A stretch of DNA of 63,590 nucleotides from a virus. The position numbers and the translations under genes were made by a program. Under the pieces are notes generated by a model. It saw nothing but the letters and a program-made list of their open reading frames with translations. It ran no database searches and was not told the DNA's origin. Below, one piece after another: positions 17,861 through 34,882 of the stretch. Each line of letters opens with the position of its first letter. Position 1 is the first letter of the stretch. The stretch lies in the IMG/VR virus record IMGVR_UViG_3300014501_000004, positions 1 to 63,590 of that record. The stretch is one strand, 5' to 3'.

Positions 17861-17946
17861 AAGCGGATTTTCCTTCGATGTTTTTCGGGTCGGGGGTGTG
17901 GAAACTCACTACGAACCTCCGCAGGCTCGGCGGCGGGTGTTTTAAA

Positions 17947-18054
17947 CTATACGGTGGGGTCGTGCGGGATGCAATAGACGTTTTCGGATTTTTGAAATTT
18001 TTTTGGGGGACGTGCGGTTAGGCCTACCCAAGATTTTAATTCGCCGCGGGCCAT
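17947..18054 (-). CDS. Possible 35-residue first gene of the leftward operon
   Basis: A short frame starting MARGELKSWVGLTARPPKKF and ending CIPHDPTV. It lies just downstream of the palindromic operator candidate and would be the first gene of this transcript. Codon choice looks coding, but the ribosome site is poor, so support is modest. Confidence 0.35.
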   Translation of the reverse strand: MARGELKSWVGLTARPPKKFQKSENVYCIPHDPTV

Positions 18055-18080
18055 CGCTTTGCGCGAGTGGTCACGCGATT

Positions 18081-18101
18081 GTGATGTATACAATACACCA
18101 C
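18081..18101. promoter_or_regulatory. Palindromic operator candidate
   Basis: A 21-bp imperfect palindrome, half-sites GTG-n-TGTAT and ATACA-n-CAC around a four-base centre. It lies in the 500-bp gap between the leftward operon (17860 and below) and the plus-strand HTH gene at 18374. Dyads of this size are typical repressor sites. It would allow one HTH protein to govern both directions. Confidence 0.5.
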
Positions 18102-18210
18102 GGGCTAGCCTGGTCGAGGTCGAAAGTGTGCGGAGCCTCGCACTACCTTTAACGATTGCGGTTAAGCCTTTGAATTGATTAGTGTTTAGCGTTTGATCTC
18201 GCTGGCGTCT

Positions 18211-18234
18211 GTCTCTCACTCTTGAGTGTGAGAC
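18211..18234 (+). promoter_or_regulatory. Hairpin upstream of the HTH gene
   Basis: GTCTCTCAC and GTGTGAGAC pair with one mismatch around a six-base loop. No T-run follows. It could be an operator or a leader structure for the HTH gene about 140 bases downstream. The remaining bases to 18360 show no gene. Confidence 0.35.
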
Positions 18235-18373
18235 GGCTGGCGCTACGGCCTGACGGTTGGCGACCGATTAAATACCCTTTTCGGCTTGATGTGGTTCGCG
18301 TTTCGTGCTAGGCGCCTGAATGTTATAACATTACATCTAGCAAGCGCCCCTCGGGTATGGCGTGTTTTTCGTC

Positions 18374-18640
18374 ATGGCACCTGAAACGGCTTTCGAGCGT
18401 ACTATCCGCCGGCTAGGCGAGACTAACCTGGTCGCGCTATTCGGTCACCGCGTCGCACGCACCACAATTGCTAATTGGCGTGCCGGCCGGCGCAATGTCC
18501 CGCCCTGGGCGATCGACCTGTTACGCAACAAAATCCGCGCGGCTCATGAAAGCGAACTGGCGGATCTGTCACAGGTTAAAGCTGGTCCGGGATTGCGCGC
18601 TGGCGCCAAAAACCTAGCGGCGTATCTGGCGCGGCGTTAG
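18374..18640 (+). CDS. Small regulator with helix-turn-helix-like fold
   Basis: An 88-residue basic protein. LVALFGHRVARTTIANWRAG followed by RRNVPPWAIDLL resembles the HTH of Cro/YdaS-like proteins, where TIANW is the recognition helix. The ATG at 18374 is preferred; a GTG at 18362 is in frame. It is divergent from the leftward operon with operator-like dyads between, a repressor/antirepressor arrangement. Its stop directly abuts a convergent gene. Confidence 0.6.
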   Translation: MAPETAFERTIRRLGETNLVALFGHRVARTTIANWRAGRRNVPPWAIDLLRNKIRAAHESELADLSQVKAGPGLRAGAKNLAAYLARR

Positions 18641-18889
18641 CTATTTAACCCGCGCCCAAAGCGCTTGCTCCCGTTCTCGCATCAACTCGCCAGCGCGGTC
18701 ATAGGACTCGTCGGCTGTAAAACTCTCGCTACCCTCGTTCCAAAGCGTTAGCTTTTTGTTATGGCCTAGCCGCACGCTTGCGCCGTCCCCATAACTCGCA
18801 ACAAGGCAAGCCGCATCTTCATAATGCTTCACGCATCCAATATACTCGCCTTGCGCGTTGTAGACCTTAAGGTGCGGCGATCCGGCCAT
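18641..18889 (-). CDS. Conserved hypothetical phage protein
   Basis: An 82-residue protein of alternating strands and loops: HLKVYNAQGEYIGCVKHYED, then CLVASYGDGASVRLGH and LWNEG. That order recurs in alphaproteobacterial phages and genomic islands without an assigned function. It is convergent with the HTH gene. Confidence 0.6.
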   Translation of the reverse strand: MAGSPHLKVYNAQGEYIGCVKHYEDAACLVASYGDGASVRLGHNKKLTLWNEGSESFTADESYDRAGELMREREQALWARVK

Positions 18890-18937
18890 GACTCCAACCT
18901 CCTCTAATTCTCCCCCGCACCATTGCGAGGGGATAGC

Positions 18938-19099
18938 TTACCCGTTCGGAAACGCTTCCCGCATCGCCTTCTGCGCCGCGCTACACGCTTCTAAATCGCC
19001 TCGGCGCAGCGCATCCACTATAGCGTCACAGTAAGCGCGTCGCGCGTCAAGAATAGCGCGTAACTCCAATACCGTCTTCGGTCGGTGCGCTTTCAACAT
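18938..19099 (-). CDS. Hypothetical helical protein
   Basis: A 53-residue protein starting MLKAHRPKTVLELRAILDAR. The ATG at 19099 is chosen because AAGGAG lies eight bases upstream. It contains three short helices and two Cys. It stands next to the candidate origin, so it would be one of the first genes on a leftward transcript from there. Confidence 0.55.
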   Translation of the reverse strand: MLKAHRPKTVLELRAILDARRAYCDAIVDALRRGDLEACSAAQKAMREAFPNG

Positions 19100-19217
19100 T
19101 TTCTGCTCCTTATAAATTATTCCGACGCATTTCCGCGTCAACAATCGCACCTTATAAACAAAAACTCTGCAAGTCAACGCCTAATTTCGTACATCGTAAA
19201 GAAAACACGCTAAATCC

Positions 19218-19451
19218 GTCACCATGTGTCACCAGCTTTTCACGCTAACCCCTTGATTTTGCTTGTCACCATACAGTGTCACCATAGGTACCCCCTTTCC
19301 GGCATCAGATGGTATAAAAATATACTAATAATACTAATGCTATTTATTGCTATTATTATACCATCCTACAAAGGAATAGAAAGAATCAATGGTGACATGG
19401 TGCTAGTGACTGCGGCACAAGGCGCACCATAGCGTCACCATAGCGTCACCA
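19218..19451. repeat. GTCACCA repeat cluster, candidate replication origin
   Basis: Seven exact copies of GTCACCA lie in 234 bp: direct at 19218, 19228, 19265, 19278, 19434 and 19445, inverted at 19390. Most come in pairs 10-13 bp apart, about one helical turn. They flank an AT-rich segment (19308-19370) with a perfect 10-bp inverted repeat. Iterons around an AT-rich unwinding region are the plan of many phage and plasmid origins. The 353-bp gap 19100-19452 has no gene I accept. Confidence 0.55.
19308..19365. repeat. AT-rich perfect inverted repeat
   Basis: GATGGTATAA at 19308-19317 is the exact inverse of TTATACCATC at 19356-19365, with a 38-base loop made almost only of A and T. It lies at the centre of the GTCACCA cluster and would melt or extrude easily. 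Confidence 0.7.
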
Positions 19452-19452
19452 G

Positions 19453-19689
19453 TCACCGGACGCGGTATATCCGCCAGTAGGGCCTTTCATATGCGCCTTG
19501 CACACGTATCCCAAGCCGCTTGTTCGCATACCCGCACGCGCGCCACATCCGCATCGCGTCCCGCTCGTGCACCACAAACGAATCGCCTACTTGCATCTGC
19601 CGGAAAGGGTAACGCGCCGGGCGCCCTCTGGGACGCTCCTGGAGCGCAACGCCTGCCGGCATAGGCCCGTCATGAATCTCATATGGCAA
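19453..19689 (-). CDS. Phage protein of the DUF7303-like type
   Basis: About 79 residues. ARYPFRQMQVGDSFVVHERD, then a helix with MWRACGYANKRLG and a final YWRIYRVR, follow a recurrent small phage family in which a protein 'sets' short basic strands. No function is known. The likely start is a TTG at 19689 with GGGAG seven bases upstream; a longer Cys-rich N-terminus from 19722 is less likely. Confidence 0.5.
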   Translation of the reverse strand: MPYEIHDGPMPAGVALQERPRGRPARYPFRQMQVGDSFVVHERDAMRMWRACGYANKRLGIRVQGAYERPYWRIYRVR

Positions 19690-19832
19690 AACACTTCTCC
19701 CTTGCTTGGAACAAGCGAACAACCTAAAATGACCGATAATAAAAACAAATCACAAAAACGTGACCAAAATACCCCTTGCCCCGTTCTGTAAACCGTGCAA
19801 TAAGAGGCAATCGACAAACAAGGGGAAAGCAA

Positions 19833-29364: not shown

Positions 29365-29699
29365 TGATTGCTTCGAAAGAATTCGACCCGCGCAAGCAAC
29401 GGCTGAGCTACAAATCGGGAAGCCCGAAGCCATACACGCTTCGCAAGTTGACTGAATTGCAGTTGGCGGTACTTGCTTGCGCTCGTGACGATTTGATTCG
29501 AGGGCCGTTTACAAAGTATGCGGCCGGACAGTCGTTCCAGGTTTTTACGGTTTTTAATCGGTTCGATGTCACGGGGCAAATAAAGTCGTTACGCAAGCGC
29601 AAGCTGATAAGATATCCGACGCGAGACCAGCGGCACGACGCTCATTTTCCGCTGACCGAATGGGGTCTCGCCGAACTCGCACAACATCCGGAGTTCTGA
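29364..29699 (+). CDS. Winged-helix-like protein
   Basis: A 111-residue basic protein. LTELQLAVLACARDDLIRGP followed by FNRFDVTGQIKSLRKRKLIR is a helix-turn-helix plus wing pattern. It starts at an ATG overlapping the upstream TAA and ends overlapping the polymerase start. It may regulate the polymerase operon. Confidence 0.6.
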   Translation: MIASKEFDPRKQRLSYKSGSPKPYTLRKLTELQLAVLACARDDLIRGPFTKYAAGQSFQVFTVFNRFDVTGQIKSLRKRKLIRYPTRDQRHDAHFPLTEWGLAELAQHPEF

Positions 29700-30985
29700 T
29701 GCGTCCCGTCGTGCTCGACTTCGAGACGTACTTCGCTGACGACTATACGCTGTCGAAGATGACCCAAGAGGCGTACACGCGCGACCCGCGTTTCGAAGCC
29801 CACGGTGCCGCGATCAAATGGGATGCCAACACGTCGGCACAATGGTACGATCAGCGCGAGCTTGCCTACATCCTGAAAGAAGAGGACTGGTCCGATGTTT
29901 TTCTTATCCATCATCATGCTCAATTTGACGGGTTCATCCTTAGTCAGCATTACGATGTTCATCCTGCCATGTTCGGCTGTACGCTCTCGATGGCTCGTCT
30001 TTTGCTTGGGAATCATCTCTCGGTCTCCCTCGATTCGGTCCGTAAACATTTCGGAATTCCTGCCAAGACAACGCCTTACAATTTGTTTCGCGGAAAACAC
30101 TGGAACGAATTGACACCACAGGTTCAACAACAAATAGGCGAAGGCGCCATCGACGAAGTCGAGTCGATCTGGAAAATTTTTGGACTTCTGATGAAAGCAG
30201 GCTTTCCGCCCGCCGAACTCGAAGTCGTTGATTCCATCGTCAAAATGTTTTGCGAGCCCGTCCTCGAACTCGATACCGCCATGCTTGCCCAACTCTGGGA
30301 GTCGGAAGCGACTCGCAAGATCAATGGCGTCAAAGCGCTAGGCATTGACAATGGTCAATTGTCGTCGTCCAATCTGTTCACTGAACTACTGGAAGCCGAA
30401 GGCATCGAGATCGAATACAAGGACGGAAAGAATGGACCCATCCCCGCTTTCGCCAAGAACGACCCGTTCATGCGGGACTTCCTCTGTGAGCACGACAACC
30501 CTCGCGTTCGTGCGCTGGCGGAAGCGCGCCTTGCGGAAAAATCCACTCTCTTGCAAACACGAGCCGCGACGCTGGGCTGGGTGGCGTCACGCGGACCTGC
30601 ACCTGTTTACCTATTTTACTCTGGAGCTGGCACGTTACGACCGTCTGGAGGAGATGGGTGTCTTACTGCTCAAACGCAGATATTGACACTTGACATCTCC
30701 GGCACACCAAAATACAAAAACATCGTAGACGTGCTTATCACCGACTTGGTGTGGGACGGCGAGGAATTCGTCGAGCACAACGGTGTAGCTTTCCAAGGCT
30801 ATAGAGAGGTCGTTAGTTGGGATGGGATCAACGGCACATCTGATCACCAAGTCCTCGCTGGTGAAACGTGGCAAGACCTTGGGGAGGCTATACGCACAAA
30901 AACGCCTATCGTGGATTGTCGCGAACCCACGCCTTGGGAAGTGGAGGCTGGTCGCGCCCGCCAACGCTCGCGCGCTATGGGTTAA
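29699..30985 (+). CDS. Family-A DNA polymerase, N-terminal part, fused to an N-intein
   Basis: A 428-residue protein. Residues 1-320 are the start of a phage family-A polymerase: LDFETYFADD (exonuclease motif I), HHHAQFDGFIL (motif II), and the palm approach ending GTLRPSGGDG, the conserved SGGD site. From Cys 321 (base 30659) the sequence becomes an N-terminal splicing domain: CLTAQTQILT (block A) and GTSDHQVLA (block B, TxxH). The frame stops at 30985, 108 residues in. It would trans-splice to the C-part at 31319. Confidence 0.85.
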   Translation: MRPVVLDFETYFADDYTLSKMTQEAYTRDPRFEAHGAAIKWDANTSAQWYDQRELAYILKEEDWSDVFLIHHHAQFDGFILSQHYDVHPAMFGCTLSMARLLLGNHLSVSLDSVRKHFGIPAKTTPYNLFRGKHWNELTPQVQQQIGEGAIDEVESIWKIFGLLMKAGFPPAELEVVDSIVKMFCEPVLELDTAMLAQLWESEATRKINGVKALGIDNGQLSSSNLFTELLEAEGIEIEYKDGKNGPIPAFAKNDPFMRDFLCEHDNPRVRALAEARLAEKSTLLQTRAATLGWVASRGPAPVYLFYSGAGTLRPSGGDGCLTAQTQILTLDISGTPKYKNIVDVLITDLVWDGEEFVEHNGVAFQGYREVVSWDGINGTSDHQVLAGETWQDLGEAIRTKTPIVDCREPTPWEVEAGRARQRSRAMG

Positions 30986-31373
30986 GTGTGAATGTGATTG
31001 CGGAACACGAAGAAAGGTTCTGCTAAAGGATTTGAAGGCAGGAAAATCTACGCAGTGCGGACTTTGTATCGAACAACCTTCGTTCTACCCCACTGTGCAA
31101 GACAAAAAATTGGCGCGCGCAATCAATCAGTGGAAAGTAAGATGTTGCTGGCCAAAGGCTTCAAACTACAAAGACTACGGCGGACGGGGAATAGAATTTA
31201 GATTCGCATCAGTCCAAGAAGCATTTGCATGGGTAGTTGAAAATATAGGATATCCGCCGCCAGGATTAAGCATCGATCGTATCGACAACGAGAGACACTA
31301 TGAACCAGGCAATCTCCGATGGGCAACTCGATCAGAACAAATGTTCAACCGTCGCGCTTGGAAAATGGTGTAA
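30822..31373 (+). CDS. HNH homing endonuclease gene inside the split intein
   Basis: The frame (0) differs from both polymerase parts (frame 2). It overlaps the N-intein by 164 bases and the C-intein by 55. The body starts near LGKWRLVAPANA: a zinc-knuckle (CECDCGTR, then STQCGLC), a 'YKDYGGRGIEF' segment and the HNH-type end SIDRIDNERHYEPGNLRWAT. Such proteins cut at cognate intein-free sites. The likely start is inside the region; ATG 30822 is the upstream limit. Being intact in its own frame argues against simple decay. Confidence 0.8.
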   Translation: MGSTAHLITKSSLVKRGKTLGRLYAQKRLSWIVANPRLGKWRLVAPANARALWVKCECDCGTRRKVLLKDLKAGKSTQCGLCIEQPSFYPTVQDKKLARAINQWKVRCCWPKASNYKDYGGRGIEFRFASVQEAFAWVVENIGYPPPGLSIDRIDNERHYEPGNLRWATRSEQMFNRRAWKMV

Positions 31374-32356
31374 AGCTGCCCGTTTACGACATTATAAATT
31401 GCGGACCGCGAAATCGGTTCGGAGCAAACGGAAAGTTAGTTCATAATTGCAACTGGCTTAACTTCAAACGTGGTTCCCCTATTCGTCGAGCAATCAAGGC
31501 GCCGACTGGATTTTATCTAGCGCCGGTAGATTCGTCCCAACTTGAATGCCGGATCGCGCATTATCTCGCCGGCGGCGCCGATGAACCGGTGGTTCGGGAT
31601 TTCAGGGCCGGTAAGGATCCCTACGTTGGCGTGGCGTCACATTTTTACCAGGAAGAAATTTACAAGGCCGAAGTCGGCGATCCGCGCTACGACGAAATGA
31701 CCGCCAAGCGCGGCATGGGCAAGCAAGGGAGGCTCATGTGCGCTTTCGGTGCGTCCGGCAAGCAGTTCAAGGCGACCGCGGCATCCGGCACATACGGCCC
31801 GCGTGTCGACATGACGCTGGATGAAGCTGACAAGTTCGTTGCATTGTACCGGCAGGACAATCCGTCGATCTGCGCCCGCGGCACCGGCTACTGGGCGCAA
31901 TGTGAGCGGATGCTGGCGCGGCTGGCTGGGGGCGATCCCATCGATTACGGTCCTGTCCACATCGAAAATCATCGAATCTATCTACAAGGACGTCCGATGA
32001 TTTATGACACCATCGAGTACCACACGCCGCAATCGGACGAGGAAAACCCCAGGCGAGGCTGGCGCGTCAAGAAGCGCGATGGCTGGCGCTTCATCTGGGG
32101 CTCGAAACTTCTGCAAAATTTGTGCGAAGGTATCGAGACAGTAATTATCTCGCAGGCTATGACCCGCATCAAGAAAAAATATGGTATCCGGACCTTGAAC
32201 TGGCCTTATGATGAGTTACTGTTGCTGATACCTCGTAATGGCCGGGAAGAAGAAATGCTGGCGTTGTGCAAGGCCGAGATGGTCGTCGAGCCTTCGTGGC
32301 TGCCGGGATTGCCGCTGGCGTGTGATGGGAGTTTGTCAGATCGCTATGAGAAGTAG
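31319..32356 (+). CDS. C-intein fused to family-A DNA polymerase C-terminal part
   Basis: A 345-residue protein. Residues 1-43 are a C-terminal splicing domain: VYDIINCGPRNRFG (block F) and ANGKLVHN ending in the Asn-Cys junction at base 31447/31448. Then the C-extein starts CNWLNFKRGSPIRRAI and has the palm motif APVDSSQLECRIA, the fingers GKQGRLMCAFGASGKQF and the late WPYDELLLLIP. Spliced with the N-part it gives about 622 residues, a normal size. The catalytic HDE is YDE here. The ATG at 31319 has only a weak ribosome site. Confidence 0.85.
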   Translation: MGNSIRTNVQPSRLENGVKLPVYDIINCGPRNRFGANGKLVHNCNWLNFKRGSPIRRAIKAPTGFYLAPVDSSQLECRIAHYLAGGADEPVVRDFRAGKDPYVGVASHFYQEEIYKAEVGDPRYDEMTAKRGMGKQGRLMCAFGASGKQFKATAASGTYGPRVDMTLDEADKFVALYRQDNPSICARGTGYWAQCERMLARLAGGDPIDYGPVHIENHRIYLQGRPMIYDTIEYHTPQSDEENPRRGWRVKKRDGWRFIWGSKLLQNLCEGIETVIISQAMTRIKKKYGIRTLNWPYDELLLLIPRNGREEEMLALCKAEMVVEPSWLPGLPLACDGSLSDRYEK

Positions 32357-33813: not shown

Positions 33814-34124
33814 TCCACACTCCTGAATGGTACGAAAAACGCGATATAGGACTGTTTCTCGACCGGCTCGGGCCTGATATCTGTTCTTATGTCAAACATA
33901 CGACCGGCGGCTTCGGAAAATCCGGTAACGGCGACTTCACGGTAAATCTCATGGGCGCGTACTGGAATGTTGAGGCGAAGCGGCCTGGGAAAGAACCAAC
34001 TGGAGTTCAGGAGCGTCGGGCCAACGAGGTCAGGCGCGCCCGAGGGCATTCGGTAGCCGGCACCGCCGAGGTGGTGATCGCTGCCATGCGCGAGTGGCTG
34101 GCTGTCAGGGGCGTGGTGGTGTGA
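33810..34124 (+). CDS. VRR-NUC-like nuclease
   Basis: A 104-residue protein. WNVEAKRPGKEPTGVQERRA followed by NEVRRARGHSVAGTAEVV matches the small stand-alone VRR-NUC/Hjc-like nuclease pattern, in which the Glu-x-Lys and Gln residues make the active site. It lies between the RecB-type nuclease and the PP-loop gene and overlaps both by four bases. It could cut branched DNA. Confidence 0.68.
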   Translation: MIHTPEWYEKRDIGLFLDRLGPDICSYVKHTTGGFGKSGNGDFTVNLMGAYWNVEAKRPGKEPTGVQERRANEVRRARGHSVAGTAEVVIAAMREWLAVRGVVV

Positions 34125-34882
34125 CCACAATCATCTCCTACGGCATCGGCACGGATTCGACCGCGTGCATTCTGCTCATGATGGCGAAGCGCGAGCCCCC
34201 ACCGCACGCGATCTTGTCAGCGGATACCGGCGGGGAACGCAGCTACACTTACGACTACTTAAAAATGTTTTCGGCGTTCATCCAGCGTTATGGTTGGCCC
34301 GCGATCACGGTTGTTCGTCGTCAACGCCGCGACAAGTCGTGGAAGTCACTGGAGCAAGATTGCCTGGATCGCAACGCGCTGCCCTCGGTCGCCTACGGAT
34401 GGAAGACGTGCAGCCAGAGTTATAAAGTGGCGCCGCAGGATAAATGGGCCAACAGCGACGCACATTGCAAAGTCGAGTGGAAGGCCGGGCGCAAGATCAC
34501 AAAAATCATCGGGTATAATTTTGACGAGACCAAGCGCGCCAGTTTCGGCGAGGACAAAAAATATATTCGGCGCTATCCGCTGATCGAGTGGGAAATCGGA
34601 AAAGAAAAAGCGAAGTGGGTTATCGAACGCGCCGGTCTCCCACTTCCCGGCAAGTCGGCTTGTTTTTTCTGTCCGCATGCCAAGGTGCCCGAGATAAAAA
34701 AGCTCGCCGTCGAGTACCCCGATCTCGCGCAGCGCGCACTGGCAATCGAGGCGGGCGCGAAATTGACTAAAATCAAGGGACTCGGCCGTCGCTTTGCCTG
34801 GGCCGATGTTTTACGCGATCACAACTTCGCTCCTGTAGAAGACCCGTTCGACGAAGAACCTTGCGGCTGTTACGATGGCTGA
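34121..34882 (+). CDS. PAPS-reductase-family PP-loop ATPase
   Basis: A 253-residue protein. SYGIGTDSTACILL is the ATP-binding PP-loop (SGGxDS type). YGWKTCSQSYKVAPQDKW and the late SACFFCPHAKVPEI give Cys residues of a likely metal or sulfur centre. The family activates sulfur or nucleic-acid substrates with ATP. In phages its job is unproven; DNA modification is one idea. It is co-transcribed with two nucleases and a helicase. It starts at a GTG overlapping the upstream stop. Confidence 0.72.
   Translation: MTTIISYGIGTDSTACILLMMAKREPPPHAILSADTGGERSYTYDYLKMFSAFIQRYGWPAITVVRRQRRDKSWKSLEQDCLDRNALPSVAYGWKTCSQSYKVAPQDKWANSDAHCKVEWKAGRKITKIIGYNFDETKRASFGEDKKYIRRYPLIEWEIGKEKAKWVIERAGLPLPGKSACFFCPHAKVPEIKKLAVEYPDLAQRALAIEAGAKLTKIKGLGRRFAWADVLRDHNFAPVEDPFDEEPCGCYDG

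What the first reader, a model, noticed from the sequence alone, without database searches (positions are those of the whole stretch)
29699..32356. Fractured DNA polymerase with split intein and HNH gene between the halves
Seen: the polymerase frame reaches SGGDG at 30658, then turns into an N-intein (CLTAQT..., TSDH) that stops at 30985. An HNH endonuclease follows in another frame. Then a C-intein (VYDIIN..., VHN) leads into CNWLNFKRGSP, the continuation of the same polymerase motif. Extein halves join exactly at the conserved SGGD/N-x-LN site and give about 622 residues. Three overlapping genes keep polymerase function only if the two parts trans-splice. Environmental 'fractured genes' with split inteins and an endonuclease gene between the halves are known. 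Alternative: a 263-codon cis-intein hit by two compensating frameshifts around the HNH.
Basis: partly seen in the sequence, partly recalled or inferred. Interest (0 to 1): 0.92.

Follow-up and report, generated by a model that had tools for sequence, protein, structure and literature searches.

The report
Split phage polymerase with endonuclease inside
In this phage the DNA polymerase gene is broken in two by a split intein (a protein piece that can stitch the two halves together), with a probable homing-endonuclease gene in another reading frame between the halves; about 50 distinct related loci show the split is a real, selected arrangement and not a sequencing error.

Summary
PolA residues 1-320 run into an N-intein that stops at 30985, an HNH ORF follows in the +1 frame, and a C-intein leads into PolA residues 321-622. 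Intein-free relatives are continuous exactly at this junction. The 'compensating frameshifts' alternative is rejected. I found 51 distinct split PolA-intein regions, 46 with an HNH gene. The HNH is in the +1 frame in 45 of 46. The C-part frame varies, and nearly all C-parts have their own Shine-Dalgarno (SD) and start codon. Ten split regions recur letter for letter in different metagenomes. HNH and N-intein are dual-coding: synonymous differences are 0.40 in their overlap and 0.78 outside. The window's polymerase sits among intein-free relatives, while its intein is closest to one in a more distant polymerase (L034), which suggests horizontal acquisition. In all 75 long cis inteins of the family the HNH is also out of frame, inside an intein ORF kept free of stops (0 seen, about 5 expected). 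Split loci have lost that constraint. This suggests how split inteins arise. Weak point: the window's C-part lacks the strong SD of its relatives, so its expression is uncertain. Fractured genes are a known kind; this is a new variant.

The parts
29699..30658 (+). N-extein: PolA residues 1-320 (exonuclease part and start of the polymerase domain, ends SGGDG)
   Evidence: 71-83% identical to full-length intein-free relatives; PHROG DNA polymerase phrog_17
30659..30985 (+). N-intein, 108 codons plus stop: Cys1 at 30659-30661, block B TSDH at 30836-30847
   Evidence: family folds as HINT
30822..31373 (+). HNH endonuclease ORF in the +1 frame (183 codons). ATG 30822 is the likely start, inside the N-intein. 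Zinc Cys 58/60/79/82; HNH core about 31269-31355
   Evidence: phrog_374, 2e-30; invariant residues; dN/dS 0.13; SD-like AGAGAGG, -7.1
31319..32356 (+). Downstream ORF: C-intein plus C-extein. Start uncertain: ATG 31319 (weak SD) or TTG 31358
31376..31447 (+). C-intein core LPVYDIINCGPRNRFGANGKLVHN
31448..32353 (+). C-extein: PolA residues 321-622, begins with Cys+1, holds polymerase motifs A, B and C
   Evidence: 74-84% identical to close intein-free relatives
30983..31303 (+). Stretch in which the intein/polymerase frame has six stops, so no continuous cis intein can be read

Best explanation
This is a fractured polA gene. A split intein sits just upstream of polymerase motif A. The upstream gene makes PolA(1-320)-IntN and the downstream gene makes IntC-PolA(321-622). 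The halves associate through the HINT fold: Cys1 attacks, with block B TxxH assisting, then transesterification to Cys+1 and Asn cyclisation (HN) release a continuous 622-residue polymerase. The HNH gene between them is a separate protein in the +1 frame, sharing coding DNA with the intein tail. It most likely cuts intein-free polA alleles at the site, so that the whole IntN-HNH-IntC cassette is copied by recombination. In this family the HNH is always encoded out of frame. In cis relatives the intein frame is kept open through it. In split loci that constraint is gone and the C-part is translated from its own start. Shown: architecture, exact junction, conservation of splicing residues, selection on all three ORFs, recurrence, horizontal pattern. 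Inferred: trans-splicing, HNH cutting, and translation of the C-part in this particular phage.
For: Intein-free relatives continuous at the exact junction. 51 distinct split regions, 46 with HNH, HNH +1 in 45 of 46, C-part offset variable. Ten split regions identical in contigs of different metagenomes. C-part starts with strong SD in relatives. First residue Cys in 49 of 51, HN end in 47 of 51, +1 Ser or Cys in 51 of 51. Dual coding and purifying selection. HNH-less split loci L038 and L025/L185. HINT fold. Window polymerase nested among intein-free ones while its intein is nearest L034. HNH found only with the intein in the records tested.
Against: The window's C-part has no strong SD and its frame to the ancestral-type start is broken by a net 7-nt difference from L034, so this copy could be poorly expressed or decaying. 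No reads, no protein data. The exact window junctions are not seen in a second assembly. HNH activity is unproven and its model matches no solved structure.
Confidence: 0.8

Rival explanations
1. A contiguous cis intein with an in-frame HNH, broken by two compensating indels (sequencing error or recent mutation).
For: N- and C-intein are in the same frame here (789 nt = 263 codons).
Against: Six stops in that frame. No relative has an in-frame HNH: 0 of 75 cis loci. Closest relative L034 is split with another C-frame. Dozens of split loci, ten of them replicated across metagenomes. The N-intein/HNH overlap is dual-coding.
Confidence: 0.03
2. Programmed ribosomal frameshifting joins N-intein, HNH and C-intein into one cis-splicing chain.
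For: The N-to-HNH offset is +1 in 45 of 46 split loci.
Against: The HNH-to-C offset varies between loci, and between the window and L034. C-parts have their own SD and ATG. A +1-frame ATG is conserved in block B. I saw no slippery heptamer near 31340-31375 by eye. HNH-less split loci exist.
Confidence: 0.03
3. A genuine split-intein family, but this copy is decaying: the C-part is no longer translated well, so the polymerase is lost or made at a low level.
For: Background-level SD at the only in-frame ATG, no ATG at the C-intein, net 7-nt difference from L034.
Against: Both exteins intact with dN/dS 0.11-0.19 against L003-L006; all splicing residues present; no stops. A very recent loss would leave no trace in these numbers.
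Confidence: 0.14

Closest known systems
Fractured genes with split inteins (Dassa et al. 2009, NAR 37:2560; not held in the library, recalled from knowledge)
   Same: Conserved phage DNA-synthesis enzyme broken by a split intein with a free-standing endonuclease gene between the halves
   Different: Here PolA and an HNH endonuclease; as I recall, the new endonuclease family there is Vsr-like. Here the HNH overlaps the N-intein in another frame, and cis relatives carry the same HNH out of frame
Split PolB intein of Pseudomonas phage MIJ3 (PMC6892783)
   Same: DNA polymerase in two ORFs with a split intein and an HNH ORF between them
   Different: Family B polymerase, single phage, overlap and cis relatives not described in the passages read
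[quoted passage not shown]
   Same: HNH encoded out of frame in an insertion that is stop-free in the host gene's frame
   Different: No intein or splicing there; here the out-of-frame HNH lies inside an intein
Npu DnaE and gp41-1 type split inteins
   Same: HINT fold, split near the usual endonuclease insertion site, long IntN and short IntC
   Different: IntC here begins at the VYDI block (about 24-27 aa in the family)
phrog_374 / phrog_3377 HNH endonucleases
   Same: Same HNH and zinc-finger sequence family; free-standing copies in many phages
   Different: Here nested in a polymerase intein

Membership tests
Naturally split intein (class 1) | Cys or Ser at position 1, TxxH in block B, C-terminal HN, Cys/Ser/Thr at +1 | tested here: met
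   C1, TSDH, HN, C+1 in the window; conserved in relatives
Naturally split intein (class 1) | HINT fold | tested here: met
   Mini-intein relative folds with pLDDT 92.5 and matches Mtu RecA and Npu DnaE inteins; the window's own halves were not folded together
Naturally split intein (class 1) | Two separately translated parts | tested here: inconclusive
   Separate ORFs with six stops between; relatives have own SD and ATG, the window's C-part start is weak
Naturally split intein (class 1) | Trans-splicing activity | not testable with these tools
   Needs expression
Fractured gene (Dassa-type locus) | Conserved enzyme gene broken by a split intein, intact uninterrupted homologs exist | tested here: met
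Fractured gene (Dassa-type locus) | Free-standing endonuclease gene between the halves | tested here: met
   HNH ORF 30822-31373 under purifying selection
HNH homing endonuclease | HNH core and zinc ligands | tested here: met
   phrog_374 2e-30; invariant C58, C60, C79, C82, D152, N156, N164, N176
HNH homing endonuclease | Cuts the empty site and spreads the insert | not testable with these tools
   Only indirect: patchy distribution
Cis intein with in-frame endonuclease domain | Endonuclease in the same frame as the intein | tested here: not met
   0 of 75 cis relatives, and not in the window
Group I / II intron | Conserved intron RNA structure in the insert | tested here: not met
   No Rfam match in the insert

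The most novel reading that the evidence does not exclude
In this phage PolA intein family the homing endonuclease is never part of the intein protein: it is always an overlapping out-of-frame gene. Cis inteins pay for this by keeping the intein frame free of stops through the HNH. Split inteins arise when that frame closes and the C-half has its own ribosome-binding site, so an overlapping endonuclease gene is the direct route from cis to split inteins.
Probability: 0.7. Interest if true: 0.78.

Novelty: new variant of a known kind. Interest (0 to 1): 0.65.

Why it matters
How split inteins arise is an open question. This family holds cis mini, cis with out-of-frame HNH, split with HNH and split without HNH in related polymerases, so the order of steps can be tested on trees and at the bench. 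It also adds some fifty distinct natural split inteins with unusually short C-parts, potentially useful for protein engineering. HNH genes inside annotated polymerases of cultured phages were missed because they lie in another frame.

Tried and rejected
Megablast of the central 24 kb against phage records: no match. Pfam and NCBIfam gave no useful hit for the three ORFs; PHROGs did. Rfam: nothing in the insert, so an intron is unlikely. Programmed frameshifting considered and rejected because the frame offsets vary. Compensating frameshifts rejected. Folding the HNH gave a confident local model but no PDB match. One alignment call failed on wrong coordinates. In one search the line comparing the window's N-extein with L034 used a wrong L034 frame and is not used. 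The Dassa 2009 paper is not held, so its details are from memory.

Full report
WHAT IS THERE. The window is a linear 63,590-base virus record. ATG 29699, preceded by an SD-like CCGGAG, opens a frame of 428 codons: 320 residues of a family A DNA polymerase ending SGGDG, then an N-intein CLTAQT...TSDH... that stops at 30983-30985. An ORF of 183 codons (30822-31373) lies in the +1 frame and encodes an HNH endonuclease (phrog_374, 2e-30). A third ORF, in the frame of the first, carries a C-intein ...PVYDIINCGPRNRFGANGKLVHN and continues as 302 residues of polymerase from Cys 31448. The polymerase frame of the insert holds six stops.

JUNCTION. Five relatives (70-85% identical in the exteins) have no intein. 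L003-L006 read SGGDG-CNWLNFKRG across the site. The site lies just before polymerase motif A, so neither half has a complete polymerase domain. Extein dN/dS between the window and L003-L006 is 0.11-0.19.

RELATIVES. Profiles of the two intein parts were used to scan viral contigs, and all fetched loci were classified by frame. There are 51 distinct split regions and 94 cis regions. The sample was seeded with split inteins, so these are not population frequencies. Ten split regions occur letter for letter in contigs of different metagenomes (for example L009/L010 and L071/L072/L073), which rules out assembly error for them. In 45 of 46 split loci with an HNH the HNH is +1 to the N-part. The C-part is +2 to the N-part in 38 of these and 0 in seven, the window among them. 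The closest relative, L034 (N-intein and HNH both 69% identical, same insertion site), has its C-part in another frame than the window. So the parts are translated independently. Most C-parts begin with a start codon right at the C-intein behind a strong SD (mean duplex energy -6.7; background -2.1).

NATURAL EXPERIMENTS. L038 has lost most of the HNH and is still split, with its C-part SD at the N-part stop. L025 and L185 (identical in this region; L185 is Aggregatibacter kilianii PN_528) have a 58-residue unrelated ORF between the parts, with overlapping start and stop codons. The split persists without an endonuclease.

OVERLAPPING GENES. Among split relatives (363 pairs) synonymous differences in the N-intein are 0.78 outside the HNH overlap and 0.40 inside, lower in 99% of pairs. 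In 31 of 49 split loci a +1-frame ATG is formed by the codon of the catalytic block B histidine followed by G. Where His is followed by Val the codon is CAT in 28 of 28, against 34% CAT in the same phages' N-exteins. This looks like the HNH start in the main group. Pairs and loci are related, so these numbers are descriptive, not significance tests. The window and L034 lack this ATG and share one 24 bases further upstream (ATG 30822 in the window).

CIS RELATIVES. All 75 long cis inteins carry the HNH out of frame: +1 in 47, +2 in 28, never in frame. All 19 without HNH are short, at most 507 nt. Independent PHROG models confirm the out-of-frame HNH in phages MR14, EBPR siphovirus 2, Gardnerella AB1 and Javan113. 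Shuffling synonymous codons of the HNH gives 5.2 expected stops per locus in the intein frame; 0 are seen. In the third frame 10.8 are seen and 10.8 expected. In split loci 16.0 are seen and 14.7 expected. Selection acts on the HNH frame in both kinds (pN/pS about 0.4), while the intein frame through it shows 1.2-1.4. So cis inteins are held open across a foreign gene, and split inteins are released from this.

MOVEMENT. In a tree of N-exteins the window lies with five intein-free polymerases (support 100), with L034 as the next branch and intein-free L008 outside (quick method). The window's intein is nearer to L034's than their polymerases are to each other (69% against 58% and 40%, the last over a C-extein interrupted by a second intein). 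No HNH copy was found in intein-free L002, L004, L005 or L006. This fits horizontal acquisition, but repeated loss is not excluded.

FOLD. A mini-intein of the family is a confident HINT fold (pLDDT 92.5) matching Mtu RecA, Npu DnaE and gp41-1 inteins. The HNH model is confident in its core but matches no solved structure.

WEAK POINT. In the window the C-part has no strong start: ATG 31319 scores -2.5 and TTG 31358 +1.2, against -7.2 for L034's start. A net difference of 7 nt from L034 puts the homologous start out of frame. Either a weak or translation-coupled start is used, or this copy is failing. The intact exteins favour the first.

KNOWN OR NEW. The layout is a fractured gene (Dassa 2009, from memory; paper not held). 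A split PolB with an HNH between the halves was reported in phage MIJ3 (PMC6892783), and an out-of-frame HNH without intein in phage methylases (PMC11855218). I found no report of out-of-frame HNH genes inside inteins in the searched library, which lacks most subscription papers. Hence: new variant of a known kind.

Noticed in passing
L014, L015, L016, L017, L022, L023, L024, L086, L098 and 66 other cis loci: Cis PolA inteins whose HNH lies out of frame inside the continuous intein ORF, including cultured phages whose polymerase is annotated as one gene and the HNH is missed.
   Followed up: partly
L025 2969-3572; L185 3969-4572 (Aggregatibacter kilianii PN_528): Split PolA intein in a bacterial genome (likely prophage) with a 58-residue non-HNH ORF between the halves, start and stop codons overlapping.
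   Followed up: partly
L038 3166-3575: Split PolA intein with the HNH almost wholly deleted; the C-part SD sits at the N-part stop codon.
   Followed up: partly
L025, L031, L032, L033, L034, L039, L057, L076, L081, L134, L142: Polymerases with two inteins: one split, and a cis one further downstream, most of the cis ones with their own out-of-frame HNH.
   Followed up: no
L002 4996-6903 against window 29699-32356: L002 is 71% identical to the window before the intein site and 85% after it, unlike the other relatives: possible recombination near the site.
   Followed up: no
L012 2731-3663 (Moraxella phage Mcat20): A short 310-residue gene annotated hypothetical that holds a complete mini-intein of this family; the polymerase around it seems fragmentary.
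   Followed up: no
window 17946-19775: No ORF of 100 residues or more on either strand over about 1.8 kb; not examined.
   Followed up: no
window 34094-34882: A phosphoadenosine phosphosulfate reductase-like gene (phrog_424, 3e-27) downstream of the polymerase; possible sulfur-metabolism or DNA-modification gene.
   Followed up: no
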